Shown here: piece after piece, positions 8,785 to 61,992 of the stretch
How the letters are laid out: each line of letters opens with the position of its first letter
Numbering within the stretch: the stretch's first letter is position 1
Assembly (NCBI GenBank): GCA_030549335.1
Contig: CM060188.1
Location: 9,548,001 to 9,612,000, forward strand
Source: Pontederia crassipes
Lineage: Eukaryota > Streptophyta > Magnoliopsida > Commelinales > Pontederiaceae
Reading direction: 5' to 3'
Length of the DNA: 64,000 bases
Notes under the pieces: model-generated
Databases searched by the model: none
Told to the model about the DNA's origin: nothing
What the model saw: the letters and a program-made list of their open reading frames with translations, nothing else
Position numbers and translations under genes: made by a program

Positions 8785-8860
8785 CAATGGCAGAGCTCTC
8801 GGTGCAAGGCAGAGACCGTCGTCGTCGTCGTCGTGAACAAAAGCCAAGGAAGAGGGCGGG

Positions 8861-37018: not shown

Positions 37019-37693
37019 GTTAATATTCCTTTAAGAATCAATTTCAGGAATTTGAATATTGTAGTGCATGCTTGTGAGAACAGCAAAGTTGCAACATGGA
37101 TGAAGGGCAGAAGAACTTCACCTGAACTGTACATGTCCGGAACAACATATCAAGTCCAAGAGAACCAACTTTTGGCATGTAATTTCTTAAAATCTCGAAC
37201 CTTTCCTATTAAAAGCATCAACAAGACTCTCTTTAACACCAAGATAAAATAAGTATCGCGAATATTTATATGTAATATTGTTTCATGGATGCACTTAAAT
37301 AGGGCAGTTTTTTTTTATGAAAGTGAAATGGAGCTGCTACAGAACAATGATAGTCACACCTTGGGTATCATGGAAATGTCTTGCCGTCTCCATTTCGGTT
37401 GAAAACCAATTCCTAAAAAACCAATGCCCATTTCTTTTGCCAAAGATTTCACCTATCAAAGAGAAAGCATGAATAAATGGCAAGAGAAAAAAAAAGAGCT
37501 TGGTTTTTAACTTATCATGAAGTATCACCTGTCAATAGGTGTTCAACGAGTCACATTGACCCAAATGAGCCGATCACGCGACCTAGGATACACCGGTCGA
37601 GTGGGTGATGGCCCCTCCTGTGGCTAGTCAGGTACAGGCTAGACTTTTCCAATTCGAGTGGGCCGACCCAACTATATATATATATATATATAT

Positions 37694-38375
37694 GAGTTAT
37701 TTCCTCTGACCATCCCTAAACTATCGCAAATTATTACATTTAATTTCAAATTATGAACTTCATTTTTTGGGTACCTAAACTATCGTGATTTTTCCAGTTT
37801 AATCCTTCCGTCCAATTTCGTCGACTTCTCCGTTATTTTTTATTTTTGTAAAAAATCCATTATACCCCTGCGTTAGTCCACTTTTACATAAAAATATAAT
37901 AATGAATATAAAAATAATTTAAAAAAAGAAAAAACAAGAGAGGGGGGTCGCCCCTCCCCCCCCCCCCCCTCGACGATGACAACGAAGGGAAAGAGAGGGG
38001 GGGGGGGGGGGTATCGTCGGAATTGGACTAACCCAGAGAGGGGACGGGGATCGCCGTCGACGACGACGCAAAAGGGGGGGTCGTCGGAATTGGTCTAACG
38101 GGGGTCGCCGCCTCCCCTCTCTTGTTTTTTCTTATTTTTTTAAATTATTTTTATATTTATTATTATATTTTTATGTAAAAGTGAACTAACGCAAGGGTAT
38201 AATGGATATTTCATAAATGCAAAAAATAAAAAATAATGGAGAAGTCGATGGAATTGGACGGAATGACCAAACTAAAAAAATTGCGATAGTTTAGGTACCA
38301 AAAAATGAAATTCGTAATTTGAGGTTAAAGGTGGTAATTCGCAATAGTTTAGATGTGGTAAGAGGAAATGGATTG
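37694..38375. mobile_element. MULE-type MITE, relative of 21894-22735
   Basis: It begins GAGTTATTTCCTCTGACCAT, continues TAAACTATCG...TTAATCCTTCCGTCCAATTTCG, and has an inverted counterpart at the right (GGACGGAATGACCAAAC...GGTAAGAGGAAAT). Inverted repeats are about 190 bp. The core is GC-rich with C and G runs. The extreme right end has drifted, and no clear 9-bp duplication remains; the left flank is a (TA)n tract. Confidence 0.75.
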
Positions 38376-39330
38376 GATTAAATCGAACGGCCGCGACCTG
38401 CTCTCCATTCCTCCTCTTCGCTTGCATCCCCTTCGGAACCTCCCCACCCCACTGTCCGGCCGGCCATCGGCGACGCCCTCGACGTGATGGCCTCCCCATC
38501 CGGCAACTCCCTCGATGCGGTGATGATTCCACCTGCGACTCTTTCGACGCGGCGACATCCGGTGATGCCCTCGCCTGCGACCACAGCCCCCTTTCGGCTG
38601 GAACGCCACCCCTCTCCCCTTCCCTCTGTCTTGCGACCGCTGCCCCCATTGACCTCCCCTCATCTTCTCCTTCGCCGCCGTCGTCGAGCACCGTCGTTGA
38701 GCCTTACGAGCACCATCGCCCAAATCCCTCTCTCTTCTCCCTTCCATTGCCTTCCCCTCCGGCGGCCGGCGACCCCTTCTGCCCCCCCCCCCCCCCCCCC
38801 CCCCCGAGCGTTGGCTGGCGTTGCCGCCGGCAAGCCCCACCTCTCCAAGGTCCCCGATCCCCGCGCGACCTCTGTCGATCACCGTCGCGATCTCCCGTCC
38901 TCCCCTCGTGAGGGCCATTGCCGGCCCCTTCCTCCGAGCTCGCCGCCACGAGCGCCCCCCGTGATCCTCTACAAGCGTCGGCAACCTCTGTCGATCACCA
39001 CCGCCGTCGAGCACCGATCCCGCCTACGGCCCATCCCTCACCCCCTGCAAGCCCGCACGTTGATCGCCACCAGATCTGTCGATCATCGACCGTCGACCCG
39101 TTGTGCCGTCCACCGCTACCGACCGTTGCGTCGTCCGCCGCCGCCGACCTCTGCGCCATCCGCCCCGATCGTCGCTCTCGTTCGCCGCCTCTTAGCTGGG
39201 CGGCGACGGCCGGTGGGGAAGGCGGGCAGCAGGGGAGAGGAGAGTAATCTCCCGATTTAATCTCATTCGTCCGTTGGATCGAATGGCTGTGATGTTTAGG
39301 GGTTACGCCCCATTGAACCCTATATATATA
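38376..39330. other. GC-rich insert of unknown origin in GSH1 copy A intron 3
   Basis: An abruptly GC-rich, C/T-biased block of about 950 bp with CCGCCG and GATCACCG words and a 24-base poly-C run (38782-38805). Long open frames on both strands are compositional (Arg, Pro, Ser, Ala) and match no domain. Its start abuts the drifted end of the MITE at 37694-38375, so it may be the interior of a larger truncated element. AT-rich DNA with (TA)n follows. Confidence 0.45.
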
Positions 39331-39518
39331 TATATTATTATCTTTAAGCATTTTCTTTAAATCTCTCCTCAACTATAATATTTTCTGTACGTCATGTTAA
39401 GTTTTCGTTATTTTTTTATTCGAGGGCACTGGATATACTGCATAGAATTTTTGCAGTTTATATGATAATCATAGTTGTTCACTTCATTCAATGGTTGCGA
39501 TCAATCTTCTTTTTTTAA

Positions 39519-39784
39519 AGAGGGTTGGTTGAATTTTTAGGAAGATAGAAACAACTGATTGAGTTAAAACAAAAAGATCACATACGTCCATTAAAATGAA
39601 CGACTGTGATTGATTTGCAGTGTATATACTGCAAAATTCATTTTAGCCTTTGGGGATTTAGGGGGGAGGGAGAGAGAGCAAGGAAAGAAGAGGGTTGGTT
39701 GAATTTTTGGGAAGATAGAAACAACAGATTGAGTTAAAACAAAAAGATCACAAATGTCCATTGAAATGAACGACAGTGATTGAT
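39519..39784. repeat. Pair of 96-bp direct repeats 170 bp apart
   Basis: 39519-39614 and 39689-39784 are nearly identical (AGAGGGTTGGTTGAATTTTT... to ...CAGTGATTGAT), with about six differences. A degenerate third trace (TTCATTCAATGGTTGCGATC) lies just upstream at 39484. The unit matches no family I know. Confidence 0.8.
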
Positions 39785-40732
39785 CTTAGCTTTTTTATTT
39801 ATAAAAAGCCTAAAGCATCATTCCCGTGTATTAAAATATATGTTCTCTTTTTTAATATTAAATAAATAAATAATATAAAACCTAAAAATTTAAATAAAAG
39901 AGGAGCACTACTCCTCCCCCTTCAGTGGTCTCGTTAGTGTCGGCGGGAGATGAGAGGATGGCACCCCCTCTCTTTTTATACAAAATCGTGCTTCCTTCTC
40001 GAACTCTTTATATTTCTCTTGTGCATGTCATAAAAAGTTCTCGAACCTCATATAACCTTCACCTCCTTAGAGGTCAAGCCACTTTTTTGGGGCCAAATCC
40101 GACAATCGGATCGGGTACCTGATCACTTTTTTTTATTTTTTTTCTTATTTTTTTTTACATTTATTTAAGATAAAAAAATACATTTAATATTTATTTAAAG
40201 CATAAATTAAGTTTTCTAACCATTTAGATATTATTTTGTACTTATAATATCTAGTTTTGTTAAAAAAATTAATCAAATATAGATTTAAGTTTAAATAAAA
40301 AGGGAAAAAAATTGGGTCATCGAGTTAGATGGATCCGGATTGAAAAAATTCTACACATATCTGACCCAACTCATTAGTCACCGATCCAAACTAAATCGGA
40401 TTGATTGAATACCTATACTCCTTTAAACTTTATTTGAAGAAGCTTCATTCAAAAGTAATGCACATAAAAGGTATGCTTTGAGAAAAAAGAGGTATACGTA
40501 TGTTTTGAAGAAAAGTAACAAATTTACTGTGGGCGGCTACAATGATTTTTATCAAACATCAATTAAAAAAAAGTAAGTGACCTTTTTTAAAAGGCTTGTG
40601 AGAAAAGCTCAAAATTAAATTTCTAATAAATCGAATATAACTTTAAAACTAGAAAAGTTTTTTAAAATAATTTTTAATATTTTAAATCGAATATAGCCTT
40701 TAAATTAAATTAAACATACATACATATACAAT

Positions 40733-40757
40733 ATATATATATATATATATATATATA
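40733..40757. repeat. (AT)n microsatellite
   Basis: A short pure AT tract. The surrounding 39.8-41.08 kb is AT-rich intronic DNA of GSH1 copy A, with GGATCGGGTACC- and GACCCAACTC-type words like those of the hAT-like elements, and no gene. Confidence 0.7.
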
Positions 40758-41092
40758 GTAGAAAAAGTTCGATGATCATATTGAGCCAGATTTTTAAAAA
40801 AAAAATCAACACACGTCCGACCCAGTCCAACTTAAATAAGTTCGGATCGAATAATCGACAAAATCGGTGAACACCTCTTATTCTGAATTTCAAGAAATTA
40901 AATAAACTTCTTGTCTGGACTGTCATAGTGTCATAACTCATAATATAGCGATGCTCAACGGTCTGGCCGGACATATTGAATGGCGCCATTAATTAACATT
41001 TTTTAAATTATATCTTAACATATTGTTTAGCCAATTTCAATATTTAATATTATTTTAATTAGTGGGCTCGCTGAGGATACACTTTTTCTAAT

Positions 41093-43385
41093 GGGAATAA
41101 TGTGTGTCTCCCAACTTAAATAGGGGACACTCCCCCATTAAATGCATCGGACGGGCCCAGATCTAAGCCGGGAATAATAAGCCGATGGGGCGGTCGGAGG
41201 TGGCTCGTGGAGAATGAAAAAAAATCGGTCGCACTCCGGTCCGGACCAAAGTAAAAGTGTTGCGATTAAAAATTTCACGACTTTTACTCTCTGACTCTCT
41301 CACCTCTTTTACTCTCTCTCTCTCGTGGCGACTTAGTGACGGAGCGTCCCCTCTTCTTCCTCTCCGTGCGACGAATTCTCCGACGTCCGTCCAGATCTGC
41401 CCGTTGCCGACCTCAATCATCCAAATCTGCTCGTCACCGTCGAGATCTGCGCCTCGACAACCGTGTTCATCCAGAGCCCGCCGTCGACGAAATCTTTGTC
41501 TCGGCGATCACGTCCGACCTCGTCCGTCCAGATCTATCCGTTGCCGACGAGGCCGACCTCTTCAACGCTCCTCTCCGTGCGGAGACCTCATCCCCATCTG
41601 CCCGCCGCCGAGCCCTGCGCGACAGCAACTGAGCTCTTCAGCGCTTCACCTCCGCATGGCAACCTCCTCCGACGCCCATCATGGCAGATCTACCGAGCCT
41701 CGCCAGAGAACTCGCCGATCTCCGGCGTCTTCACGCAGCGACGAACCCCCGACGATCTCGAGCACCCACGCGAACCCTCGGCGATCTCCAGTCAGATCTA
41801 CGCACAGCGGCGGTCCACCAGCCAAATCTGCACGCAGCGGCGACCTCCCGGCGACCTCGAGCACCCACACCAAGCCACGTCGATCCCCCTCATGCGATCT
41901 CTGTGTGTCACTGTGCATGCCTACGAGCTTCGCCACCGACCTCGGGACCATTCCGACCTTGAGCACGCCGCGGCGGGACCTTCGTCGATCTGCGGCATGC
42001 CTCCGACCTACGCAGCTCTGAGCTCCGCCGTCGACCTCGAGACTCCTCCGATGACTCTCGAACTCATCCCTTGACCTGGACTGACGATGCTTCGAACGCA
42101 CACACCGAATTCGGAACTCGAGTGCAGCCTACATCAAGGAGTGCCGCTAGTTCCACTGCTGAACCCAAGTACCCGCGACCAGATATACGAGACCATGAGC
42201 ACCCTGCCTCCTTGTCCCCCCACCCCTCCCCCCCCCAAAGATCAGCTACACCGAGCGCCGCAACCCCTCGCATGCTTTAATCCATGTTTTAAATATCTAA
42301 TCCTGTTATTTTTTTTTTGTTTTTGAAAATTATTAGTGATTGTGGCAACTATGCATATGTGCTGGCTATGTGATGGATGTTCTATATCTAGAGATTTTAG
42401 ATTGTAATTTGGCTTGTAATGTAATGGATGTGCTATGTAATGGATCTCTTGTAAATAATTAGTGATCGTGGTATTTTATCGTAATTACGGACTTTATCCG
42501 CATACCTCAGTGTTAAACATGGGGAACAATTGACATATACTTCATGCTCCTCTTGTGGTTTACCTCAATGTTTATCTTCTTAATCACTTAGGTGAACTTG
42601 TTAATGTGTCGCCAAAATTAATGTCTACTATCTAGCAACATGCGTGTACAATCCACAAAGTAGTGTACAATCCAAGTGTACAATGCAAGTATCAACCACA
42701 AAGTAGCACGCCTAACAATAACATCCATTTATCACTATCCATATCAACTCGGCGGGGAATCTCGACGGCGACACCGGCGGTGACTCCCGGATGCGGGCAA
42801 GCGTGGCGGAGCTCGTCGGTGACAGCGAGGGGAGGCATGTGGCGTGCGGCGCTCGGGGGGCGGGCGGCAACGGCGATCGGCGGGGCTGATAGTCGGTGCT
42901 TGGTGGCGAAGCTTGTGGGAGAGCGGCGGCGGAAAGGGAGTCGGGGTGCGCGGAGGTCGACAATGCTCGGCGAGGCTGATGGTCGGTGCTTGGCGGCGGA
43001 ACTCGGGGGGAGCGGCGGCGGACAGGGAGTCAGGGTGCGCGGGGTCGACGATGCTCAACGGGGCTCTCGACGCTTGGCGGCGGAGCTTGGTGGGGGAGCA
43101 GCGGCGGACAGGTGGGAGGCGGCGACGCTCAGCGGACAGGCGGGGATCTGGTCAGGGTTGAGGACGGCGAGGGGTCGCGGATCTGGTCGGCGGGTTCGGC
43201 GGAGTGCGGTCGGCGAGTCTTGCGGGGCTGATCGACGGGGTCGGCGAGGGGTCGCAGATCTATCATCGCGTCAAAGTCGCTGCTTGGCGCAGATCTGACC
43301 AACCATCGGATATAACACAAAATGCTCAAATCTACGCCAGCCATCGGATTCACCCCACATAAGTTGGGGGGACTCCCATTATTCC
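41093..43385. mobile_element. MULE-type element with 9-bp duplication and GC-rich cargo
   Basis: A 2.29-kb element in intron 3 of GSH1 copy A. It begins GGGAATAATGTGTGTCTCCC and ends with the inverted form GGACTCCCATTATTCCC. Perfect 9-bp flanks, TTTTCTAAT, are at 41084-41092 and 43386-43394. It has two GC-rich blocks, 41340-42275 (C-rich, CCGTCGACG and CAGATCTGC words) and 42750-43310 (G-rich), separated by AT-rich sequence, so the cargo is roughly inverted in base composition. No transposase is seen. The GC-rich blocks could be captured gene pieces (Pack-MULE), but I recognise no protein in them. Confidence 0.88.
42862..43110. repeat. 90-bp tandem repeat, about 2.5-2.8 units, inside the MULE
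   Basis: The phrase GCTGATxGTCGGTGCTTGG recurs at 42885 and 42975, with a shortened form (CTCTCGACGCTTGGCGGCGGA) near 43064. Between them GGCGGCGGAxAGGGAGTCxGG and GTCGACxATGCTC recur at the same spacing. All lie in the G-rich half of the element. Confidence 0.75.
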
Positions 43386-43633
43386 CTTTTCTAATTACAA
43401 AAGGAGGCACTTGAATATGATGTGATACTTCAATTAAAAATACATCGAATTACTGGGACACAACGGATTGAAAATTACTATCTAAGGAGAGTATGATCAC
43501 CACTCCTTTTAGCAGTTTAAGCTTCTAAGAAAGATAGATGGTCACTAAGTTAAAATATCCAGAGCTTTAATTTTAAAAAAGGACTTCCTTAACATTCACC
43601 TTGTAGAAAGAAAAATCGTCACAGACGTATAAG

Positions 43634-46600
43634 GACTTCTAGAAAATTGTCATTTTCCGACGAGCAATTTCCGACGGATAGAAATCCGTCGCAATTTGTG
43701 ATAGAAATGTCTACGATGAATTTTCCGACGGTTACAACCGTCGGAAATGAAAATAATAAATTATGTAATTTATTATATTATTATTTTATTTTTTGACGAT
43801 TAGGAACGTCGATATTTCTTATGGATATCCATCCGTCGCAATTTCCGTCGGATTTTCTGACAGTTACGATCGTCGGAAATGAAAAATAAATTATGTAATT
43901 TATTATATTATTATTTTATTTTTTGACGATTAGGCACGTCGATATTTCTGACGGATATCCATTCGTCGTAATTTTTGACGGATTTTTTGACGATTACGAT
44001 CATCAAAAATAAAAAAATAAATTATGTAATTTTTTATATTATTATTTAATTTTTTGACGATTAGGAACGTCGATATTTTCGACGGATATCCGTCTGTCAC
44101 AAAATTCGCCACAATTTTCGACGGTCATAATCATCGGTAAATGTATAATAATATAATATGAGAAGTATTTTATTAATATATAAAAATAGTGACAGTTCAA
44201 ACCGTCACAATTTTCGACAGTTCCGACCGTCGGTAATAATTAGCGACTGTTCAAATCATCGGTAAAATAAAAATAAATATTATATATAACTAAATATAGT
44301 ATTTTATTTTTACAATTAAATAATTTTCGACGTTCACAACCGTCGGTAACTTTAAAAATAATTAATATTTACTTTTCCGACGGTCAGAGTCGTCAGTAAT
44401 TATAATTTCGTTATCTCACTTTTTTTTTTCATTTTCCCACTTTCTCATCTTTCCACACACACACATATATAATACCCTTTTTTTCCTCCTCTCTCCCTCT
44501 CCCTCTCCCTCTCCCGGCCGGCGAGCCATGACCGGATGTCAAGCGTCGACCCTCTCCCGTCGACATCTCTCTCTCTGGATCGATCGCCGGCATCTCTCTC
44601 TTCGGCCCGGACCGCCAAGCGGTCGGATCTCGCCACTGGCAGCCGAATCCAGCCGCCATCGGTGATAGTGAAATTAAGGTGTTGAGTGATAACTTGTTGA
44701 ATTTTGGATCAAAAGTCAATTTTTCTAATTTTTATTTCAACTCCCTAACTCACTCTCTACTGCAGTGTACAGGTCAATTATAGTAATCCTAAATGTCGTA
44801 TTCACAGTGATTTGAAGTCCTAGACTACCTAAAAATAATTTAGACTAATCATATTTAAAGTGGCAAAGACAGATTTTTCAAGGAAGTGAAAGCAGATTTT
44901 TTTTTCTCTTTTAGGAATGCATAATGATAACTTGTTGTAGATTGCTGAAAATTTAATTAAACTAAATTGTAAATGCTAATTTAGAGTCTCAAAGGATTTA
45001 TCTATTAATGAGGAAGGTCCTCTTAGGAGTTGGGGTTCATCTAATCTAATTATGGATGGAAATGGACAAGTTATCATTTTTTAGTCAAATCTAATTCAAC
45101 TTTCATTATGGCTATTTTCACAACTTAAATTGACCATAACTAAACAATATATTATCATATAATTGTTAGACAAGTTGAATTAGAAAAGAATCCTCACTGA
45201 AAACCAAATTATCATTAGATTCAAATCAAGACACTTGCTGATTTTTTGGCAATTTTAATAAAACCTGAAATGATAACTTCTAGATTGCACCTTGAAAATG
45301 AAAAGAATGCTTCAATCAACTAAATAGGGATGAAATCAATCCAATATTAATGCAAATGCTCATTGGTTTATCTCTAAACTACAAGAGGATTTAAAATCAG
45401 CTTCTCAGCTGCAAATTCAAATGAAATTCACATTTCCATTAATGAATTGAATAGAAATCAGCACCTAATACAAGTTTGGAAAATCAGAAATTATCATTGC
45501 TCCTTAGCTCATCTTTGAATCTCAAGGAAGGCCTTAAAACTATCTCTCAATGGTGTATTAAAGTAGGACTTAACAATGGCAATCAGATTTTAGGAATTTC
45601 AGAAAACCAGAAATCAGCAACTCATTCAAATCAGGAAAAACTAAATGTGATTACAGATTTGAATCATAAGAATGTCAAAAGTTCTCAATCCATTTCTGAA
45701 CAAGATTGGGATAGATGTTAACCTCTCAGTTGTTCAATTAATTCAATCCCCAATGACAATCAGATTCAAACAGCCCAGAAAAATTAGAAATCAGATTGTT
45801 CAAAAATTAGGAAAGCAGAAAATCAGCAACAATTACAAATTAGAACCTTATGAATGTCATTGCATCTTGATCATTTCTGAACTAGAATGGAACTATAAGA
45901 TAATCTCTCAGTTGTCAAAACAATTAGGGCTCCACAATGACAAAACATGTTCTAAGAATTCAGAAATTAGGAAGGCATTCAGATTTCAGAAAAATTAAAT
46001 TTCAGAAAGTAAAAATCAGAATTCTAATTGAGTTTGTATCTAGAACTTGGCATTGGTTCTTAGTCCATTTTTTAACAAAGATTATAACGAATGACAACTT
46101 CTCAGTTGTAAATACAAATAGGATATGCAATGGCAAGAACATGTTCATAACAATGCAGATTTGAAAAATAAAAAAACTTAAATGATTCACTGCAGGAAAT
46201 CAGACTTGTCCCTAATCCATCCACAATTAATCTAGACTACTACCCTATCCTAGGAGAGCTAAATCATACTAAACAGATTTGAAAACTGATACAAATCATC
46301 CTGAAATTAGTTGATATGAAGGTTGTCCACAGAAAATCAGAATGTTGCAGCAGTTCCTTCTCCAGCTCCTCCCTTCTTCTCTGGTCCAGAAACCCTCCAA
46401 ATGGAGGCTCCCTTTCTCCTCCAGAAATTTTAGCTTTTATATCTCTTTTTATCCACCCTTTGATCAGCATCATAATGTTCTATTATGCCCTAATTATGCC
46501 ATCTGTCCCTGCTCAGAATATCCTGTTGCTGCATCAACTTTTTGGACAGAAAAAGTAGATGGTCCCCCATACTTTTTTTCTTTTTGCAGAATTGTTATAC

Positions 46601-48099
46601 TTGCTGAAAAGTCCATAACAGCAAATATCAAAGACCTTGAATAGGATTTAGACAAATAAAGCTTAAAACAATAGTATATATCAGCTCAAACACCAAATAG
46701 GATTGGGTGTTGTGCAGGAACAAAAATCACAAATTAGAATTGATAACTTATGGAACCCGAAATGATAACTTTGCAAATTTCATGGAAAATATCCAAATAT
46801 GAGTGGTTCAAAGCATGGAGGGCATCAAATGGATTAGGGTGTCAAGTGAGTGAAGTCAGAAATCAAATATGAATATGATTTCATAAAAATGATAACTTAG
46901 GTGTCAAAACGATAACTTGTTTGCGTTAAAAACGATAATTTATCATAACTTTTGTTGTGGTTATTCAAATGTGATCAAATTTGAACAGCAAAGAGTTAAG
47001 ACAATAATATAATGAATGCTTAATGCCTTTGACAGAATTAATGATTTTGCATGTCGAAATGATAGAATTTCCCTTTAACGATAACTTGACATTGAAAAAA
47101 TGATAACTTATTCAAAATGACTTAAAATTTTGCACAAGTTGAGATGTGACCATTCAAATATAATTCATTCATGATAATGATGAATTTAGGGCAAGAAAGT
47201 CACTGAAATTTAGTTCACTCAAAATAATGATAACTTGGTCTATTGAAGTGATAACTTGTCCTAAAAATGATAACTTGACATAGAATTTAAATTTTTATAA
47301 ATTTTGGTATTTCAGAACCTCTATGCACATGGAATTAGGTATAGAATGAAGAATATCAACTACTTATCATAATCTATGCATTTCAAACATAATTGGGCAA
47401 AAGTTGGACGATTTAGGGATTCGATAGGGGTGAAATGCATCTAAAATGGGATAAAAACCTATAGTGATCAGCTAGTAATCAGGCGGCCAAATCGGCCGCC
47501 TGGCCGTCGGATCCGATCGCGGACGGCCAGATTCGGCCGCTGACGGCCGGCTCGGTCGCTTGGCATCCGGATCCAGCCGCTGGCTGCCGAATTCGGTCGC
47601 CTGGCTGCCGAATTCGGTCGCGGATGATCGGATTCGACCGCTGACGGCCGAATTTAACTGCGGGCGGCCGAATCCAATCGCAGGCAGCGGGATTCGGCCG
47701 CGGGCGGCGGTGGCAGCAAGATCTCGGCCACCGGCTAATTGTTTTATATTATAAAAATTCTTTGCGACAATTTTGACCGTCGGAACTTCGACGGTCGCCC
47801 GACGACCGTCAAAATTTTCGGCGATAGCAACCGCCAAAGTTTTCGATGATTTCGTCTACTGTCGCAAATATCGGCGGTCAGGACCGTCAAATTTTCTACG
47901 GTTCCGTCGACCACCGCAAATATCAGCAATCGTGACCATCGGAAATCCGTCGAAATTTCCGACGGTTCTTTCCCAATCGTCGGAAATTGATTTGCGATGA
48001 CCATTTTTCAGACGAATCGATTCCGTCGAAAAAACTGACGACGTTGGGGGAAATTACAGACGGTTTGAACCATTTGCAATTCTTCTATTTCTTGTAGTG
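43634..48099. mobile_element. Large non-autonomous CACTA-type element (composite)
   Basis: The right terminus ...TTTCTTGTAGTG (inverse CACTACAAGAAA) is intact at 48099. The left terminus has drifted (GACTTCTAGAAAATTG, matching CACTACAAGAAAATTG of the 52.5-54.2 kb element). Both subterminal regions (43650-44400 and 47755-48060) are dense in inverted CCGACGGT/ACCGTCGG words. Inside are C/T-rich and GGCCG-rich blocks (44460-44660 and 47480-47730) shared in style with the smaller element, and a 2.8-kb AT-rich centre with repeated ATGATAACTTG words. Flanking triplets (AAG and CGC) do not match, so the ends may come from different insertions. No transposase is recognised. Confidence 0.75.
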
Positions 48100-48970
48100 C
48101 GCATACATGAGAAAGCGTTAAAATTATAAATATAACGATGATTCAAATTGTAATTAACAGTTGAATTAATAGTAATTCAACTTTTCACATGATAAATTTC
48201 ATTAAATATCATTCAACTTTATGCAATCAATTGACTAATGTGAGTAACCGTATTTCTATCTCCTCTATGCAATCAATTGACTAATGTGACAAATAAAATA
48301 ACATAATAATATTTTAATCATTTAAAAATAAAATAATATTAAAAACAAATAAATGTAATAATTTAAAAATAAAAAAAGGAGTGTTGTCCCCTTTGGTAGC
48401 CTCGTCGATGCCGGAGGGAGGAGTTTGTCGGAGGTTACAGATGGGGGGCAACGTGTTGTTTGTCGTAGGGGAAGGGAGGGGTGGGGGGAGGGGGCGTCGA
48501 CAATGCTGCCAAACTGGGCGACACACCCCTTCTTTTTTACTTTTTTTACTTTTAATTATTATATTATATTAATATTATTTTAATTTTTAATGATGCCATG
48601 TATGTTAGTTGCTCACTTGGAGGAGAGAAAAATAAGTTGTCGACAACGCAATTGAAAAATAATCAATCGCGAGTAAAAAGGGCATTTGGTGAAAGAAATA
48701 ATTAAATGACAGTTTAATTACAAAGTAAAATTTGAGTATAAAATTGAAAATGATAAAGTTGGAAGGCAAGCTTTTTATAATTTTAACCAATAAATGTCTA
48801 AGCTGATACCTTGCATATGGCCAAGCAAATATACAATTCCTGATAAATAGTACGATCTAATTTTATAAACTGACCTGACAAAGGTGTGAGTTGATCTCAG
48901 CAAAGTTTTGATGCAGGGTTTCAAGAGGTGAACCACTTAGCTCAAGCTGGCCACCTGGCTCCAATGAAAT
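48036..48970 (-). repeat. Near-identical tract, copy A member (partner 56964-57899)
   Basis: It runs from TGACGACGTTGGGGG, within the right end of the CACTA element, through intron 3 into exon 3 of GSH1 copy A. Aligned by eye with copy B it shows only about 6-7 differences over 935 bp, whereas exon 12 differs at about 9 of 93 positions. Similarity drops abruptly after the exon 3 acceptor. Confidence 0.85.
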
Positions 48971-49295
48971 GTTTTTATTGCCCTGAGAAATTAATCAAAT
49001 GCGTCCCTTTAGTTGTGAGGATGTGAGAGAAACAAAAGTCGTTATAGCAAACGGAAACAGATCTCACCTGCTTGAGACCAATAATGTGATCACCTTCCAT
49101 TATTCTATCCCAGCCAAATCTCTCTGCTAAACCATTCAGCAGCTCTGCAATTTGCTGATAGCTCACCGGTCGCAAATCCCAACTTCGAAGCCAAACTTTT
49201 CATGTTCACTACCAATTCTGTCAACAGAAAATAACAAACAATATGTTACCACCACCAACTATCGATAGGATCTATATATGTTTTTGGTCGTGGTA

Positions 49296-49514
49296 CACTA
49301 CAATAAATATAGGAATTACAGACGATTTTGACCGTATGTAATTTCTTCAAAAATCGTCGAAAATATCGTTTTCGATGATTTTTTTCGACGAAATCGAGAC
49401 GTCTGAAAATGATCGTCGCAAATCAATTTTCGACGATTGATAAAGAAACGTCGAAAATTTTGACGAATTTCCGACGAAAATTATTCGTCGAAAAATGATA
49501 ATTTTCTTATAGTG
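49296..49514. mobile_element. 219-bp CACTA-type MITE in GSH1 copy A intron 1
   Basis: It begins CACTACAATAAATATAGG and ends AATTTTCTTATAGTG, with the 3-bp duplication GTA on both sides (49293-49295, 49515-49517). The interior is almost entirely subterminal-type repeats (TCGTCGAAAAT, TTTTCGACGA). Confidence 0.88.
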
Positions 49515-50017
49515 GTATAGCCCTTTTATTATTCTTTTATGAATGTTTCTATGGAGAATTTCATAAATTATATAGAATATTTTTATTAGAACTCTCGCGG
49601 GAACGTGCATGCATTCTTGTAGGTTTGTGATTTCATCGCTCCATGCACGTAAAGAGCTTTGACGGCAGTTTGTTTATGTTACCTCCACATCTCCTTGGGC
49701 TTGCAGCCAGAAGCCATATACGCGACGAGGTCCTCCTTCGTCAGCGGCTCCGCCGTCACGACTGTCTCCTCCGTCGGCGGGCTCGCCGCCACCGTGGTCC
49801 CTCTCCGTCGTCTCCTCGGCACGCCGCGGGCGACGACGTCGACGCCGAGGCGCACACCTTTTTGTCGGCGCCGGCGCCACCTCTCCTCCCACAGTTGACA
49901 GGATGGCAGTCTTTCTCTCCCCTTCCCGCTGCCGTACTTCGCAGCGGCGGTGTGGAAGCTCGGAATCGCCTCCGGGCAGCGAAGTTGGTTAAGCAGCACG
50001 CTGCTCATTGCCGCCAT

Positions 50018-52260: not shown

Positions 52261-55200
52261 TCAGTACAACAATTCCTCAAAGACTGGATCAACATCGCCG
52301 CCCCACTCTCCATGGTACAATTCCAGAAGTTTCTCAGCCGGTGTAGTTCCTGTCAAAATTGCAAGACATTTTGTAAGAAAATGAGCCCTCCATATTTGAG
52401 AAGGTTTTCAAGCAATTTCACATTTCCTAATTCATGGAAGCAAAAGTAATGCAAGTGATAGGTCACTACTAGAAAAACGTTGATTACCGATGGACCGTCG
52501 GTAATCAGTCCGAAAATCATCGGTAACGCGATTACCGACGGTTTTTCAGTCAGAATCGATCCGTCGGAAAAACGCTCGTCGCAAACGGATTTGCGACGGT
52601 TGAAAAAAATTCGTCGAAAATATCGACGGTTCGGACCGTCGGAGCAGTCCCCGGCGGTTCGAACCGTCGAAATTTTCCGATGGTTGCAACCGCCGGAAAA
52701 GTCCCCGGTGGTTCGAACCGTCAAAATTTCTGACGGTTGCAACCGCCGAAAAAGGCCGGGTTCGAGCTGTCGCAACTTTTCGACGGTCGCAACTGTCGAA
52801 ACTTTGGACGGACGTCGCAACCGTCAATCTTTTGACGGTCGCAACTATCGCAAATAATTTTTTAAATATAAAAAAATTAGCGGCCAGATCGGGCCGCGGT
52901 CAGCTCCGGCCACGGCCAAATCCGAACGCCCGGCGGCCGATCCGGCCGATGGAGGTCGGATCCGGCCGTCAGTCGGCCGATCGACCGCTGGGGGCCGAAT
53001 CCGAACGGCCACGGCCCGATCCGAACGGCCACGGCCCGATCCGAACGGCCACGGCGAGATCCGGCCGCCAGCGGCCTTTGGCCGGAGAGAGAAAGAGAGA
53101 GAGACGTCGGTGCGGAGCCGGAGAGAGAGAGACGTCGGCGTGGGAGAGGGTCGCCGATGCGGGAGAGAGTCGCCGGCGCGGGAGGGTCACTGGCGTCCGG
53201 CGCGGGAGAGAGTCGCCGGTGCGAGAGAGGGTCGCCGGCGTCCGGCGTGGGAGAGGGTGCTCGCGGCCGGGAGAGAAAGAGAGGAGAGGGAGAGAGAGGA
53301 GTGGAGGGAGGGAGAGAGAAGAGGGAGGAGGAGGAATATATATAAAGGGAAAAAGTGGAAAGAAAGCGGGAAAAAGGAAAAAAAATCGGGATAACAAAAT
53401 TTTAATTACTGACGATTTCGGCCGTCGAAAACGTAAATATTAAATATTTTTATAATTACCGACGGTTGTGACCGTCAAAAATATATTTAGTTATATATAA
53501 TGTTTATTTTTTATTTTACCGACAGTTTAAACCGTCGGTAATCGTTACCGACAGTCAAAATCCGGTAATTGCGACGGTTTGGGCCGTCGCTAGTTATATT
53601 AATAAAATACTCTTTATATGATATTATTATACATTTACCGACGGTTATTTTACCGACGGTCTGAACCGTCGGCAATTGTTATCGACGGTCAAAACCGTCG
53701 GTAATCGTTACCGACAATCAAAACCATCGGTAATTGCGACGGTTTGGACCGTCGCTAGTTATATTAATAAAATACTCTTTATATGATATTATTATACATT
53801 TACCGACGGTTACGACCTTCGAAAATTACGGCGAATTTTACGACGGATGGATATCCGTCGAAAATATCGACGTTCCTAATCGTCAAAAAATTAAATAATA
53901 ATATAATAAATTACATAATTTATTTTTTTATTTCCGATGGTCGTGACCGTCGGAAAATCCGTCAGAAAAATTTAATAATAATATAAAAAATACATAATTT
54001 AATTTTTTATTTCCGACGGTCGTAACCGTCGGAAATTACGACGGATGGATATCCGTCGGAAATATTGACGTTCCTAATCATCGAAAAATTAAATAATAAT
54101 ATAAATTATTTCCGACGGTCATAACCATCAAAAAATCTGTCGGAAACGGAACCGTAAAAAAATCCGTCGCAAATTGCGACGGATTTAGAACCGTCGGAAA
54201 TTATCCGTCGGAAAATCGCAATTTTCTTGTAGTGGGTGTTCAATGTTGACAAATTCGATTAAAAAACTCTTCAAGTATGCCACAGAGTTTGACGACTTAC
54301 TCATATTCTAATGACAGAATTTGATCACGAGTTTTTTATTCCTTGCTAAAAAAATTTAATTTTATATGTGATACCTGTTCTGACCACTTCTGTTACTTCA
54401 TTCAAAAATACAGCTTCTTTGAAACCTCTTCTTTCCAATCCATCCTGGACCATTATGAGAAAAAGAATTGAGAAAAAAGAGGTCATAGATAAACAGTCAC
54501 ATATAAATGGACTAACCTTTGCAAACTGTAAAGCTTCTTCAGCAATATGTCTCACTAACCCTCCCCTGAATGGCGTCTTGAGTCCAGTAACTGGAACCTA
54601 TTAACCAAATTCCAATTTATCAGAAAACTATTTTTAATTTCAGTAGTGTGGATAAAGAAACACATGATATTGACAGGACAAGTAAATTCTACTGGAGGCA
54701 GTAAATTATTATATCATTCTGCTGTTGCCAAATTCAACAAAGAAAAGGATCATTGGCAATTATTATAGATATGTAGTATCAAAAAGGTTCTACTGTACGT
54801 AGCACCTCTCTCCTCAACATCATCCTTTCTTCGTTGGTCCAATCTACAGTCATGTCTAGAACATTTTGTAATGAAACATCGTCGTACAACAAGCCAACCT
54901 GCAAAATGTAAGGAGCCAATTTAAATAGGCAGGAATTATCAATTACATCTAATATGGACTGAGAGAAAAAAAGAGCAAATATAAAGGTGATCCCATATGT
55001 GAAAATCAGCATACCCAGAATGCTGGCAGAGCATACAATCTACTACATGGACCAACATCAGCACCCCTCATTTCCAGGAACGTTTTAAGCCTCACCTGCA
55101 AATGAATTATTAACATTCGGTTTACTGATTTGAGCTTTACTTCCTTTTATAGAGTATCATCCAACAGAAAAGACACCTCAGGAACTACTGCTGTTAGATG

Positions 55201-58200
55201 ATTCACCCAATCATTTATTGTTGGCAGTTCCCCAGGAATTGTTGGGAGTTTTCCTCGCATAAAGTCCTGCGAGTATCATCAAATAGTATTTTCTTAACTG
55301 GTCTTACAAATGCATTTTCAAGGGATTCAAAAATTAAGCAAATAGATGGAGAGTATAATGAACCCTGAATGACATTCCAGCACAATCAACAAATTTATTT
55401 TTCCGGTATACAGAGAGCATAGGAACATCTAAAGCATAGTCCACATACTGCTCAAATCTGCAAAAAGATGAAATGTGTTGGTTTAAAAAAAGCAACCGAT
55501 CAAACTTCATAAGATGTGGAACAACATATCTATGTATGTACATGTTTATTTATAGGAGAAATGCAGATTTTTAGTTGAGAAGTCTGCTGTTATAGATTCA
55601 GACCCAATGCCAAATATATCAACATAGATGCAAACTTCTAAGAGCAACAACATTATTGTACAATTTTTGGCGAAAAGATAAACTGTATTTACCCGAAAGA
55701 ATTATCAAATACAAATGGAAGCATTCCCGTGCGCTTGTTGTCTGTATCAGTCCACGCATGACTATAGAAGACAATAATGGAACTCTTCTCAATCAGATAA
55801 ATTCAGAATGACTGAACTAGAAACGGTGAAAAAAAGAACTAATTAACACGTACCTTCTCATGCTGAGGTAACCATTTGGTTTTCCTTCGGTGAAAGGTGA
55901 ATTAGCAAATATGGCTGTTGCAATCTGATGTACAGAAGAACTGTGAGGAACAAAAAATAACAAGTTTCAGATGAGAAATATGTATGCACTTACAGGTTGC
56001 AAAGCAAGTCCTGCACGAAATTTCCTAATCATATCCCATTCAGAACTGAAGTCGAGATTAACCTGAAAATAAAGCATCTGATTTACACATGCATCTTAAT
56101 AACATTGTTTTAAGACTCAACTTCTGCGATTCTAGTGATGCTTGTGAGAACAGCAAAGTTGCAATCTGAATGAAGGGCAGAAGACTAAGAACTTCACCTG
56201 AACTGTACATGTCCGGAACATCACATCAAGTCCAAGAGAACCAACTTTCGGTAAGTGATTCCTTAAAATCTCGAATCTTCCCTATTAAAAGCATCAACAA
56301 GACTCTCTTCAGCACCCAAAAAACAAAACAAAAAAAAAAAAGAATATTTCAGGAACTTTCTTCAACATCGAGATGATATGGTCTGATGGATGCACCTAAG
56401 AAGGACACATTTCTAAGTTTATGAAAGTGAAATGGAGCTGCAACAGAAGTTAATCACACCTTGGGCATCATAGGAATGTCTTGCTGTCTCCATTTTGGCT
56501 GAAAACCAATTCCCAAAAATCCAATGCCCATTTCCTTTGCCACAGTTTTCACCTACGAAAAAAAAGTAGCTAGGTTTTAACCTAAAAAAAGCTTGTAAAT
56601 TGTAATAAAAAAGTTTTTAACTTAAACATGAAGTATCACCCATCGTCACAAATTCAACCTACAATAAAATGTCAAATGGTTCATCGTGCACGGGATTGCG
56701 GGTCTTCTGATAGATTTGATCAATCCAACTTTGATTTGATTTTGTTGACACATGTGCTCCCTTAATTTATCGAACGAATTTTAGGAAGCCAAGCCTATTA
56801 AGACAGAGATATTTAATGGACGGAATATTAATCGGATATGTCGAATAGACCAATTTATTAAACTCTTTTTATTATATTTTAGTAAATTACCTAATACGAT
56901 TGTTAATATAATCATTAATTATATGGACGGGCATCGAAGTTTGGGTATTGGTTAAATGACTTGGTGACGACGTTGGGGGAAATTACAGACGGTTTGAACC
57001 ATCTGCAATTCTTCTATTTCTTGTAGTGCGCATACATGAGAAAGCGTTAAAATTATAAATATAACGATGATTCAAATTGTAATTAACAGTTGAATTAATA
57101 GTAATTCAACTTTTCACATGATAAATTTCATTAAATATCATTCAACTTTATGCAATCAATTGACTAATGTGAGTAACCGTATTTCTATCTCCTCTATGCA
57201 ATCAATTGACTAATGTGACAAATAAAATAACATAATAATATTTTAATCATTTAAAAATAAAATAATATTAAAAACAAATAAATGTAATAATTTAAAAATA
57301 AAAAAGGAGTGTTGTCCCCTTTGGTAGCCTCGTCGATGCCGGAGGGAGGAGTTTGTCGGAGGTTACAAATGGGGGGCAACGTGTTATTTGTCGTAGGGGA
57401 AGGGAGGGGTGGGGGGAGGGGGCGTCGACAATGCTGCCAAACTGGGCGACACACCCCTTCTTTTTTACTTTTTTTACTTTTAATTATTATATTATATTAA
57501 TATTATTTTAATTTTTAATGATGCCATGTATGTTAGTTGCTCACTTGGAGGAGAGAAAAATAAGTTGTCGACAACGCAATTGAAAAATAATCAATCGCGA
57601 GTAAAAAGGGCATTTGGTGAAAGAAATAATTAAATGACAGTTTAATTACAAAGTAAAATTTGAGTATAAAATTGAAAATGATAAAGTTGGAAGGCAAGCT
57701 TTTTATAATTTTAACCAATAAATGTCTAAGCTGATACCTTGCATATGGCCAAGCAAATATACAATTCCTGATAAATAGTACGATCTAATTTTATAAACTG
57801 ACCTGACAAAGGTGTGAGTTGATCTCAGCAAAGTTTTGATGCAGGGTTTCAAGAGGTGAACCACTTAGCTCAAGCTGGCCACCGGGCTCCAATGAAATGC
57901 TTTTGTTGCCCTGAGAAGTCAGATGCTTCTCTTAATCTGTTGTGAGGATGTGAGAGAAACAAAAGTTATTATAGCGAACAGAAGCAGCTCTCACCTGCTT
58001 GAGACCAACAATGTGATCACCTTCCATTATTCTATCCCAGCCAAATCTCTCTGCTAAACCATTCAGTAGCTCTGCAATTTGCTGATAGCTCACCGGCCGC
58101 AGACTCCCAACTTCAAAACCAAACTTTTCATGTTCAGTACCAATTCTGTCAGCAGAAAACAACAACAATATGTTACCACCAATCATAAATGAGATCTTAA

Positions 58201-61200
58201 CATAGTTAACTAAGACAAGGAACATGATAGGAAACAGAAAACTACCAGGGAAATAAACGTAACATCTTAATTAATCTAACAGTTAAAATTCTACAAATCA
58301 ATTGTGATGAACTGTGAACCCACTGCAGATACATATAATGGCAGTATTTCTATTATTCAACAGTTAAACTTTTAGGCTGTGTTTGTTTGCGAAACTGGGC
58401 GAAAACTACGTCCTTGTTCCGTCCGATTTGTCAGACAAAGCTCCGAAACTCAGTTCCGGGACGAAAATAAATGTGATGGAACGGGTCTCATGTGACCTCG
58501 GTTCTATCATTTTTTTGTGAAATCGAAAATCACACCAGCTTTTCTTTTGTCCTTTGAGTTTGACGTGATGATTTTTTTAAAATTTATTTTCTTTTTTCAT
58601 TTTCTTTTCTCTCACATGATATCTATTATAAAATAAATTATTTAATAAAGATAAAATAATTTTAATAAAGGATTAATATAATATTTATTACTTATTATTT
58701 CATTAAAAAAATTAATATTTAATTAATTATAAAAACAATTTTGTACATTTAAATAATATATTTTTTAACAAAAAGTTCCCATATTTTTTATTTTATTTTA
58801 ATTAATAACAAAATTATACTTCATAATTATAATAATCATTTTTAATTCAAAACTCACCAAAAATTCATCAATTATATTTACTTTTTTCTATCACATCGAC
58901 CATATTATTCCTTATTATCAAATTCTACTCCAATCAAATACTACCCGAACTAATATGTCAATTCAACTATGCAATAGAAATTTAGGAGGAACTACGATTC
59001 AGTTTCTAAAAGATCCCTTAAGAATTATTACAAAGTTTAAGTCTAAGTAAAATTTCTATTATTTATAATTGTAGGATGTGTTTGATTTTCTGATGATGGA
59101 GGGTGGGTTAGGATGGTGAGAAATATAAGTGGTGAAGTTGAGTGTAACGCGAGTTTATAAAAAATTATGTCTGAATATAAATTAATGAAATGGGTTGGGT
59201 TAGTATAATCCAATTTTTGTTTGGATATAAAATATATTATATAAATTAGAGAAGGTTAAGTTTAATAAATGTTTTATTATCCTTAAGAAAATTTTATTTC
59301 TTTTTATTTCATTGAAAAAAAATAAGGGTAGTCTAGGAATAATTATTTTTAACCCCTCCAAAACTACTAATTTCATAAGTAAAAAATTTAAACCAACCCC
59401 GCCCTCATTAAATTTATCCCATCCCTTCTAAATTTTTTATCCAAACATTCTCTAAATGGTTGTGCTCCTCTTCTAATTTTCCTATGTAATAATATTCTAA
59501 TGTCTAAGAACGTATCCCAATTAATAGTGGATCTCATAAATCTTCTGTCTGAACAATTTCTTTGGAAGGTTTAATTTTATTGTAGTCATCACAATTATTT
59601 ACAATATCTACTTTTTACGGGTTATATATCTTAATTTATATTAGATTTTGCGAAGACTTATTTTTGTTCAAATTTTGATAATATTCCTAATTAAATTGGA
59701 TCTTATTCAACCATAACTCAATCATCAACAAATTAAGTGTTAGTCTCAACTTTTTTGGGGTCATAGTTAGTGACCTACCAATATTTAGGGTTACTAGCAT
59801 GCGAGTAATATGATACTCGTGACCGAAATGTGAATCTTAATTAAATTGGTGATTCCAAAAATTCGAATTGATCCCAAATGTTACTGATTAATCTCAAATT
59901 TTTAAATCCCTGTCAGTTGAACTTGACTTGACTCTATCATTTTTAAAAAAAATAAATGATTTTATTTGTTTAATATTTTAAAATTTATTTGGTTATTTCT
60001 AGTGGTGTTTATTAGATTGGACGGCCCGATTTGTCCGTTGGCTGAACCCGATATGATAACGGGTAAGCCCGTTCATATCTGATCCAAATCTGTCCAATAA
60101 ATTATCAAACTTGGACAAATAATAGGCCAAACATTATATTTCAGTCGTTTGTCCGATATCCGATAGTTCGGTATCCGTCCGATATCCGTCCATTAACTAA
60201 CAAACCGTCCGATAGGACGACTGTTAATCCGTTAATAATATTAGCTAATAAACTTATATGATAATATTTACCTAATGATAAAATATAAGTTATTTATCCA
60301 TTATTAATTTGATTTATTCTAATTTTAATGAAAAAATAAACAAATGAGTAAAAAGACAAAAGAAATATAGAAAATTATGAGAAAAATATGGAGTAAAAAT
60401 TTAATGATACCTTATTTATTATATGTATTAATGTATCAAGAAAAGAATATAAGAAAATATAGAAAAAAGAAATGCCAATTTTAAAAATAAATTAAAATAA
60501 TAAATTAAGTTTTTTAAAATATTAATGGGCTTGTCCGGTTCATTGCTAACTGACCTGTCCGTTAAACTTTAACGGACTGGACAAGTTTGGAAGTCTATTA
60601 GGTGGTCCGATAATAACTCATTAAATTAATGAGCTTATCCGGCTCGTCCGATGTCCGGTCAAAACTCGATTGACCGAAACTATTAGGAGTCTGTCCGATC
60701 CGTTAAGCACCACTTATTTCATATATATGAAAAAAGTTTTAGATGTTAGAAAAAATGCTCTTATTTATAACAAAAGTTATGTTTAATATTATAAACAATA
60801 ATAAAAATCTATTAGAATGATCAATACAACCAAGTGCGATAGGATCGAGTTGGATTTGTTCGAAAGATTTCTTTCTCGTTATCTAATTTGCAGTTGAAAG
60901 TTTTATTTTTGATAGGTTGCAAATGCAGTAAATCCTTACACCTGGGAGATTGGTTTTTCCCTTTTCGGCCTTCATTTGTGAGACCCACGAGGAGAGATAT
61001 ATGTGCACTGTGGAGTCCACATGTTTGATTTACGGTTAACTATTCAAATTTTTTAATAATAATTCATCTAATTTAGTAGTTATTTGATATTTTAAGAATA
61101 AAAGAAATAATTGTGTTACGATGAAAGTTGAACATATAAGTAAGAGAGAAAAAAGGTTTAATTTTCAATTTCTTTTGAAATTTGTCAATTCGTATGTCAT

Positions 61201-61992
61201 ATTTTTTGGCAAATAAAATCTAGTTAACCTTTAAATATTCTTAACAATCACACATATTTTTAAAAAGAAAATATATATAAAGAAAAACAAAGTTTTAGAA
61301 AATGAATTAACCCCCTCCACTCCACCACATATTTTTCGATTTTTTGAAGAGGAAGATTAAATTCTTCCAAAATTTCATGAAATTTGTGGCAAAATCTAAT
61401 TAGCATAGCATTAGAAGATATTTTTAATCAAAACTCATCGATGTCCAGAATTATTAATATCCCACCAATTCGATATTCGAATGGAAGCCATATAAATAAA
61501 TACATCAAACTCACAACACAATCGCATTATCGGGTGTGACAACTTAATTCATTAGAAGTTTTATGATCTCATCACTCCGTGACCATGCATGCACGTAAGG
61601 GGCTTTTGGCAACAATTTGTTTAATTAGCGTACCTCCACTTCTCCCTGGGCTTGCAGCCGGACGCGAGGTACGCGACGAGATCCTCCTTCGTCAGCGGCT
61701 CCGCCATCGCTACTGCCAGCTCCTCCGTCGGCGGGCTCGCCGCCTGCACCGCCGTGCTCCCTCTCCGTCCCCTCGGCACGCCGCGAGCATCCGCGTCGTC
61801 GACGTCGAGGTGCAGGCTTTGCGGCCGCCGGCGCCGCTGCCGCCTCTCCTCCCACAGCTCACCGGAAGGCAGTCTTTGCCTCGCCCTCGGTGGCCCTCTC
61901 TCGTCGCCGTACCTCGCGATGGCGTTGGGGCACGGGATCGTCGCCTCCGTGCCGCGAAGTTGGTTGAGCAGCGCGCCGCTAATCGCCGCCAT
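52261..61992 (-). CDS. GSH1: Glutamate-cysteine ligase, chloroplastic (GSH1 copy B)
   Basis: This enzyme makes gamma-glutamylcysteine, the committed step of glutathione synthesis (EC 6.3.2.2). Fifteen exons: 61992-61634, 58145-57995, 57910-57803, 56552-56460, 56281-56198, 56062-55994, 55924-55854, 55761-55693, 55457-55364, 55266-55177, 55095-55015, 54898-54806, 54597-54517, 54444-54375 and 52349-52261. They total 1602 nt and join in frame to 533 residues plus TGA. The first ~85 residues form an Arg-rich transit peptide before ASPPTEE. Conserved pieces: [127 protein letters not shown] and [10 protein letters not shown]. Oddities: residues 197 and 417, Cys in the Arabidopsis enzyme, are Phe and Tyr; a CACTA element lies in the last intron; exon 3 belongs to a near-identical tract shared with the pseudogene. 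Confidence 0.96.
52464..54234. mobile_element. CACTA-type non-autonomous element in last intron of GSH1 copy B
   Basis: A 1,771-bp element that begins CACTACTAGAAAAACG and ends CGCAATTTTCTTGTAGTG, flanked by the 3-bp duplication GGT (52461-52463, 54235-54237). Terminal regions (52480-52850 and 53410-54220) consist of inverted ACCGACGGT/ACCGTCGG units. The core (52880-53340) is GC-rich then GA-rich, with an exact 20-bp unit (CCGAACGGCCACGGCCCGAT) repeated about three times at 53001-53058, and ends in a TATATAAAGG word. No transposase is present. Confidence 0.93.
56964..57899 (-). repeat. Near-identical tract, copy B member (partner 48036-48970)
   Basis: It contains about 63 bp of the CACTA right terminus (TGACGACGTTGGGGG to CTTGTAGTG at 57027) with no element attached, then intron 3 and exon 3 of copy B. 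To its left the sequence is unrelated to copy A. Immediately beyond exon 3 the two copies diverge again. Confidence 0.85.
58376..58996. mobile_element. TIR element in GSH1 copy B intron 1, relative of 29308-29958
   Basis: It begins GGCTGTGTTTGTTTGCGAAA and ends GATTCAGTTTCTAAAAGATC. It shares an ordered series of words with the 29.3-kb element (TTGACGTGATG, AAAATTTATTTTCTTTT, ATTATACTTCA-AATTATAATAATCATTTTTAA, GAGGAACTACGATTC). The extreme ends have diverged and no clear target duplication remains. Confidence 0.65.
59070..59455. mobile_element. Possible AT-rich MITE in GSH1 copy B intron 1
   Basis: It begins near GGATGTGTTTGATTTTCTGATG and ends near TTTTTTATCCAAACATTCTCTAAA, weakly inverted ends of the GTGTTTG.../...CCAAACA type. 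It is loosely related to sequence near 30236. Bounds and class are uncertain. Confidence 0.4.
60001..60715. mobile_element. hAT-like non-autonomous element in GSH1 copy B intron 1
   Basis: The left end is AGTGGTGTTTATTAGATTGG and the right end is CCGTTAAGCACCACT, imperfect inverted repeats. TTATTTC occurs on both sides (about 60002 and 60714), consistent with a 7-8 bp duplication that overlaps the ends. Subterminal GTCCGTT/AACGGAC words are frequent and the centre is AT-rich. Confidence 0.55.

What the first reader, a model, noticed from the sequence alone, without database searches (positions are those of the whole stretch)
55015..57910. Copy B lacks both cysteines of the conserved GSH1 redox disulfide, with new cysteines nearby
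From memory, Arabidopsis GSH1 is redox-regulated by a Cys186-Cys406 disulfide (spacing 220), said to be conserved in plants, and a Cys349-Cys364 pair limited to some eudicots. In copy B the aligned residues are Phe197 and Tyr417 (also 220 apart). Cys360 is kept but its partner is Thr375. Copy B instead has Cys205 (HLCQ) and Cys413 (GPCSR), where the Arabidopsis enzyme has Tyr and Trp. The disulfide may have shifted register or the switch may be lost. Copy A also has Phe and Tyr there.
Basis: partly seen in the sequence, partly recalled or inferred. Interest (0 to 1): 0.82.

Follow-up and report, generated by a model that had tools for sequence, protein, structure and literature searches.

The report
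Second plant GSH1 lacking redox switch
Beside two normal copies of the enzyme that starts glutathione synthesis, this plant keeps one intact and still-selected extra copy that has lost the paired cysteines of the normal on/off switch, one of them apparently by copying DNA from a decaying neighbour gene; what the altered enzyme does is not yet known.

Summary
Copy B (window 61992-52261, minus) is an intact 15-exon, 533-aa plant-type glutamate-cysteine ligase (GSH1) with Phe197, Cys205, Cys360, Thr375, Cys413 and Tyr417 as described. The genome (1.13 Gb plant) also holds two canonical, intact GSH1 genes (C13, C14) with both switch cysteines. Copies A and B form a divergent tandem pair, matched by a second pair (A', B') on C5. 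Three of these four are broken; only B is intact. B evolves under strong constraint (omega 0.095; omega=1 rejected, 2dlnL 22.8).

The cysteines went in steps: Cys406 was lost before A and B separated; Cys186 was lost in the A lineage and most likely entered B by gene conversion from A (907 of 910 aligned bases identical; B' still has Cys186). Cys205 occurs in all four copies; Cys413 is private to B (CGT to TGT), so a re-registered disulfide is not supported, though not excluded. The cysteines are 2 of 14 changes that B carries at 120 deeply invariant sites (canonical C13: 1; 80 bacterial relatives: at most 6). Best reading: a retained, functionally diverged GSH1 without the Cys186-Cys406 switch. 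Activity, substrate and expression are untested; no structure was obtained.

The parts
52261..61992 (-). Copy B: intact divergent GSH1 (glutamate-cysteine ligase) gene, 15 exons, 533 aa
   Evidence: spliced alignment and re-translation; TIGR01436 717.1 bits against a cut-off of 463.15, PF04107 280.3 bits against 21
61634..61992 (-). Copy B exon 1 (start codon and putative transit peptide)
57995..58145 (-). Copy B exon 2 (not converted: carries B-type sites)
57803..57910 (-). Copy B exon 3 with Phe197 (Arabidopsis Cys186 site) and Cys205
56970..57879 (.). Conversion tract shared with copy A (3' part of exon 3 and part of intron 3); 907 of 910 aligned bases identical to A, one base extra in A; last B-type site before it 57884, likeness to A ends near 56965
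55364..55457 (-). Copy B exon 9 with Cys360 (Arabidopsis Cys349) and the changed Y338L/F339S pair
55177..55266 (-). Copy B exon 10 with Thr375 (Arabidopsis Cys364 site)
55015..55095 (-). Copy B exon 11 with Cys413 (Trp402 site) and Tyr417 (Cys406 site)
31926..50017 (-). Copy A: tandem paralogue, pseudogene (frameshift in exon 2, in-frame stops in exons 12 and 13); likely donor of the conversion tract
48041..48951 (-). Stretch of copy A (3' part of exon 3 and part of intron 3) that matches the tract in B; ends placed by offset from the alignment

Best explanation
Copy B is a retained, functionally diverged plastid-type glutamate-cysteine ligase that cannot form the Cys186-Cys406 disulfide and so cannot use the normal oxidation-on/reduction-off switch. 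The divergent clade lost Cys406 (to Tyr/Phe) and Trp402 (to Arg) and gained Cys205 before A and B split; Cys186 then became Phe in the A lineage, and a conversion tract of about 0.9 kb carried that Phe from A into B, while B's presumed homeolog B' still has the Cys. A, A' and B' have decayed; B alone stayed intact and constrained. Shown here: gene structure, residues, states of the copies, the tract, the constraint. Inferred: the order of changes and direction of conversion, lack of the switch in the protein, plastid location, and that the 14 changes at invariant sites alter activity, regulation or acceptor preference. My guess at the work it does: a second ligase not gated by this disulfide, working beside the canonical redox-regulated pair.
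For: Intact 533-aa frame, 14 of 14 GT..AG introns. Over the family cut-off. omega on the B branch 0.095; omega=1 rejected with 2dlnL 22.8; not different from the canonical pair (2dlnL 0.53); lower than the pooled broken copies (2dlnL 6.5). Sister copies broken: A frameshift plus 2 stops, A' exon 4 acceptor AG to GG and exon 11 donor lost, B' 29-base duplication shifting the frame in exon 1. Canonical C13 and C14 intact with both cysteines; the whole-genome protein search finds these six genes and one exon-1 fragment, counts being lower bounds. Tract: 907 of 910 aligned bases identical, coding divergence of A and B in exons 4-15 9%; informative sites inside it 25 A-like, 5 B-like, 4 other; before it 14 parental of 21. 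B' keeps Cys186. 14 of 120 deep sites changed against 1 in C13 and at most 6 of 119 in a bacterium.
Against: The free-branch model is not significantly better than one omega overall (2dlnL 13.0, 7 df), so the contrasts among copies rest on single tests that I chose after seeing the copies, on 327 codon sites. No expression, activity or localisation data. Changes at 14 deep sites could equally mean a weak or dead enzyme. No structure was obtained. On the 5' side of the tract A and B are also fairly alike (exon 2 143 of 150, intron 2 70 of 81 aligned bases), so there the tract is set off by site patterns more than by identity. One of the five sites that the canonical gene can polarise in the tract speaks for the other direction (57730), and three of the five lie in an intron whose alignment to the canonical gene is uncertain. 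Cys186 and Cys406 are also present in bacteria, some of whose enzymes are reported not to be redox-switched (PMC9426629), so the cysteines may have another role as well.
Confidence: 0.72

Rival explanations
1. Re-registered switch: Cys205 and Cys413 form a new disulfide that replaces Cys186-Cys406.
For: Both new cysteines lie 8 and 4 residues from the old sites and, of the four divergent copies, only B has both. If both segments are antiparallel helices the offsets run in compatible directions (inference, no structure).
Against: Cys205 is present in all 4 copies, 3 of which have Arg at the 413 site; Cys413 is a single CpG transition private to B; site 194 is variable and charged in 47 of 80 bacteria, site 402 is Trp in 80 of 80.
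Confidence: 0.1
2. Ordinary decay: B is a member of a dying family that has not yet broken.
For: Three of four sister copies are broken; the clade changed fast (49 B-unique against 13 C13-unique residues with 9ufc as outgroup) and the changes do not avoid deeply conserved sites (14 of 120).
Against: The B branch has about 7 non-synonymous to 17 synonymous changes and omega 0.095, rejecting neutrality; splice sites, start and stop intact.
Confidence: 0.15
3. B is a non-catalytic or weakly catalytic partner that modulates the canonical enzyme by forming mixed dimers.
For: Constraint together with many invariant sites changed; the canonical type of enzyme forms homodimers (PMC9426629).
Against: No evidence of interaction; motifs EPGGQx[24 protein letters not shown] and RSHxWTDTD are kept in the alignment (that they surround substrates and metal is recalled).
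Confidence: 0.1
4. Assembly artefact: the A-like tract in B is a chimera of tandem copies.
For: A and B are in tandem and nearly identical over about 0.9 kb.
Against: 3 differences and one extra base inside the tract, B-type sequence on both sides; Tyr417 lies far outside the tract and Cys205 is in all four copies.
Confidence: 0.04

Closest known systems
Plant-type glutamate-cysteine ligase GSH1 (TIGR01436; PDB 2GWC/2GWD, 6GMO, 9UFC)
   Same: match over the curated cut-off along the whole profile, same 15-exon pattern as the canonical genes of this genome, motifs listed kept
   Different: lacks Cys186, Cys406 and Trp402; 14 changes at 120 sites invariant in two plants and at least 78 of 80 bacteria
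Cys186-Cys406 redox switch of land-plant GSH1
   Same: the two sites align at the same spacing of 220
   Different: Phe and Tyr in B, so this disulfide cannot form
Green-algal GCLs reported to lack Cys186 and Cys406 (Gromes 2008 as cited in PMC9426629, passage)
   Same: absence of both cysteines
   Different: here a secondary loss in one paralogue of a plant that keeps the canonical enzyme; algal sequences were not compared

Membership tests
Plant-type glutamate-cysteine ligase (TIGR01436 / PF04107) | score over the curated cut-off over the whole profile | tested here: met
   717.1 bits against 463.15, profile 1-446 of 446; PF04107 280.3 against 21
Plant-type glutamate-cysteine ligase (TIGR01436 / PF04107) | intact coding gene | tested here: met
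   533 aa, 15 exons, stop at the end
Plant-type glutamate-cysteine ligase (TIGR01436 / PF04107) | ligase activity on glutamate and cysteine | not testable with these tools
   needs an enzyme assay
Plant-type glutamate-cysteine ligase (TIGR01436 / PF04107) | plastid location | not testable with these tools
   N-terminal extension present and the AASPPTE stretch with which the Brassica chain starts is kept; no predictor run
Redox-switched land-plant GSH1 | Cys186 and Cys406 | tested here: not met
   Phe197 and Tyr417
Redox-switched land-plant GSH1 | oxidation-dependent activation and dimer formation | not testable with these tools
   needs protein
Rosid-type second disulfide Cys349-Cys364 | both cysteines | tested here: not met
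   Cys360 kept, Thr375 at the partner site; the canonical copies have Ser there
Gene conversion between tandem copies | tract far more alike to the neighbour than the flanks, with sharp change of site pattern and a discordant counterpart copy | tested here: met
   907 of 910 against 79-81% in the exon 4-15 blocks and 86-95% on the 5' side; site pattern changes between 57884 and 57881; B' has Cys186

The most novel reading that the evidence does not exclude
B is a neofunctionalised ligase: loss of the switch, plus changes at sites held fixed from bacteria to plants, gave it a different acceptor or a different regulation, so that this plant makes gamma-glutamyl compounds (or gamma-glutamylcysteine) in plastids independently of the redox gate on the canonical enzyme.
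Probability: 0.3. Interest if true: 0.75.

Novelty: new variant of a known kind. Interest (0 to 1): 0.5.

Why it matters
GSH1 makes the first and rate-limiting step of glutathione synthesis, and its Cys186-Cys406 switch is thought to tie that step to plastid redox state. A natural, selected GSH1 without the switch, beside a canonical pair in the same genome, lets the role of the switch be tested by comparing natural paralogues. It also looks like a case in which gene conversion from a decaying copy removed a conserved regulatory residue from the surviving one.

Tried and rejected
Register-shifted disulfide: rejected as the likely reading for the reasons given in the rivals. B' as a second working copy: its exons 2-15 read through with good splice sites, but exon 1 is frameshifted by a 29-base duplication and a later in-frame ATG of B is ACG there. 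The A' entry V196Q and the A' exon 4 counts come from that false junction; A' and A values (omega 0.32 and 0.86) are superseded (0.27 and 0.60). (counting and bootstrap) was not repeated after the correction. False small introns that the aligner put in exon 1 of B and A' are aligner errors in a poorly conserved region; exon 1 of B is one open frame. Conversion of exon 2, which the first comparison seemed to include (97% block), was rejected by site patterns. The sub-region counts overlap by two bases; one search gives the clean count. Other plant genomes could not be searched, so whether other plants carry this clade is open. Papers: no report of a plant GSH1 paralogue lacking the two cysteines was seen in the listings of searches, several of which list only the top of more hits; not all were aimed at this. 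Passages were read in PMC9426629, PMC6799929, PMC8464934, PMC3817356 and PMC11432348. The primary papers were looked up and are not held (Hicks 2007, Hothorn 2006, Yang 2019); for Gromes 2008 I tried a recalled DOI that differs from the one printed, so whether it is held was not tested.
Full report
What is there. The window is C6:9548001-9612000 of a genome of 1.13 Gb in 43 contigs, evidently a plant; the species is not given. Spliced alignment of a canonical GSH1 protein built from the same genome gives copy B as 15 exons between 61992 and 52261 on the minus strand. The joined coding sequence is 1602 bases, one frame, 533 aa, with GT..AG at all 14 introns. The last exon (52261-52349) lies beyond a 2-kb intron.

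Other copies. A protein search of the whole genome lists 83 exon matches, all on C5, C6, C10, C13 and C14; the tool calls such counts lower bounds. C13 and C14 carry canonical intact genes (5 of 528 residues differ) with Cys186, Trp402 and Cys406. C6 carries copies B and A in tandem. C5 carries a matching tandem, B' and A', presumed homeologs. C10 holds exon 1 and part of intron 1, 99.9% identical to C13 over 1792 bases. So the plant does have the canonical, switchable type of enzyme.

State of the four divergent copies. A has a frameshift in exon 2 and stops in exons 12 and 13. A' has lost the exon 4 acceptor (TGG for TAG) and the exon 11 donor (TT for GT). B' has a 29-base tandem duplication that shifts the frame in exon 1; its exons 2-15 are open. 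B alone is intact.

Order of the changes. Position 406: Cys in C13/C14; Tyr in A, A', B; Phe in B'. Position 402: Trp in C13/C14; Arg (CGT) in A, A', B'; Cys (TGT) in B only. Position 194: Tyr in C13/C14; Cys in all four. Position 186: Cys in C13, C14 and B'; Phe (TTT) in A, A' and B. Simplest history: Cys406 and Trp402 lost and Cys194 gained in the common ancestor of the four; Cys186 to Phe in the A lineage before A and A' parted; then Phe moved into B.

Gene conversion. Over exons 4-15 with introns B and A are 79-81% alike in the aligned blocks and 9% different in coding bases. From 57879 to 56970 they match at 907 of 910 aligned bases, with one extra base in A. On the 5' side likeness is intermediate (exon 2 143 of 150, intron 2 70 of 81, start of exon 3 24 of 27), but there B keeps B-type sites: 14 parental of 21 informative sites at 58150-57880, the last at 57884. 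Inside the tract, of 34 informative sites where B' is alignable, 25 are shared by A, B and A', 5 by A, B and B', 4 other. Where the canonical gene can polarise, four sites (57831, the Phe codon; 57795; 57741; 57737) favour A to B and one (57730) the reverse; all but the first of these lie in the intron, where the alignment to the canonical gene is uncertain. The Phe codon lies in the tract. Beyond 56968 B resumes likeness to B' (92.6%).

Selection. On exons 4-15 (outside the tract; 327 codon sites), with codon models fitted by my own script (correcting): omega B 0.095, B' 0.52, A 0.60, A' 0.27, canonical pair 0.042. omega=1 is rejected for B (2dlnL 22.8) and A' (5.2), not for B' (1.65) or A (0.49). 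B does not differ from the canonical pair (0.53) and does from the three broken copies pooled (6.5). The whole free model against one ratio gives 13.0 for 7 df, not significant at 5%, which I count against over-reading the differences. Counting on the same exons gives about 17 synonymous and 7 non-synonymous changes on the B branch, omega 0.12, bootstrap 0.04-0.25 (324 codons, made before the A' exon 4 correction).

How unusual the protein is. Of 518 bacterial relatives confirmed, the best 80 were kept. Cys186, Trp402 and Cys406 are present in 80 of 80. At 120 sites fixed in Brassica, 9ufc and at least 78 of 80 bacteria, C13 has 1 change, B 14 (T185N, C186F, Y229F, M232L, Y235H, M236L, M246V, A263W, Y338L, F339S, T381A, F383V, W402C, C406Y), and no bacterium more than 6 of 119 when left out in turn. 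Relative-rate counts: 49 B-unique against 13 C13-unique residues (9ufc as outgroup), 49 against 11 (Brassica). Much of this came before A and B parted: 32 plant-fixed sites differ in all four copies. Only five residues are found in B and in none of the six other plant sequences compared (M236L, I382V, W402C, V495T, N512D). So the family went through a burst of change, also at otherwise frozen sites, and the survivor was then held. I recall, without a call, that the Arabidopsis alleles rax1 (Arg228) and cad2 (Pro237-Lys238) lie in the 226-246 stretch, where five of the 14 sit, and that the rax1 residue is tied to cysteine binding; hence my suspicion that the acceptor site is touched.

Mechanism. 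PMC9426629 and PMC8464934, passages read, state that the Cys186-Cys406 disulfide goes with the active form, that reducing it lowers activity, that dimers form but are not required for activation, that some green algae lack both cysteines, and that some proteobacterial enzymes have the cysteines yet are not switched. B cannot make this bond. Whether B is therefore always low, or always on through its other changes, cannot be told from sequence. A replacement bond between Cys205 and Cys413 is possible on paper but nothing in the history or conservation points to it, and no model was obtained because the structure service was busy at each of six tries.

Verdict. A true and well-supported observation. 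The likely cause of one of the two losses (gene conversion) and the survival of only this copy are what this work adds. It is a new variant of a known enzyme, of moderate interest until its activity is known.

Noticed in passing
G000:C10:62467525-62469316 (L025 1494-3285): A 1.79-kb copy of exon 1 and part of intron 1 of the canonical C13 gene, 99.9% identical; the protein search shows no other GSH1 exon on C10.
   Followed up: partly
L028-L107: All 80 bacterial relatives examined keep Cys186, Trp402 and Cys406, so these residues probably have a role that is older than, or separate from, the plant switch.
   Followed up: partly
exons 4-15 of B, B', A, A', C13, C14: Synonymous distances of the presumed homeolog pairs differ: C13-C14 0.034, A-A' 0.074 (before the A' exon 4 correction), B-B' 0.127; a single duplication date does not explain them simply.
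   Followed up: no
window 52350-54374: Intron 14 of B holds an insert with tandem repeats that is shared in part with 43.6-44.5 kb, inside intron 3 of copy A.
   Followed up: no
window 13016-15915, minus: Open frames that look, from memory, like exons of an acetylornithine aminotransferase gene; not searched.
   Followed up: no
window 7873-8847, minus: 324-aa open frame that looks, from memory, like the first exon of a trichome-birefringence-like (TBL) gene; not searched.
   Followed up: no
window 35790-36512, plus: 240-aa open frame inside intron 5 of copy A that looks, from memory, like the zinc-binding tail of a LINE-type reverse transcriptase; not searched.
   Followed up: no
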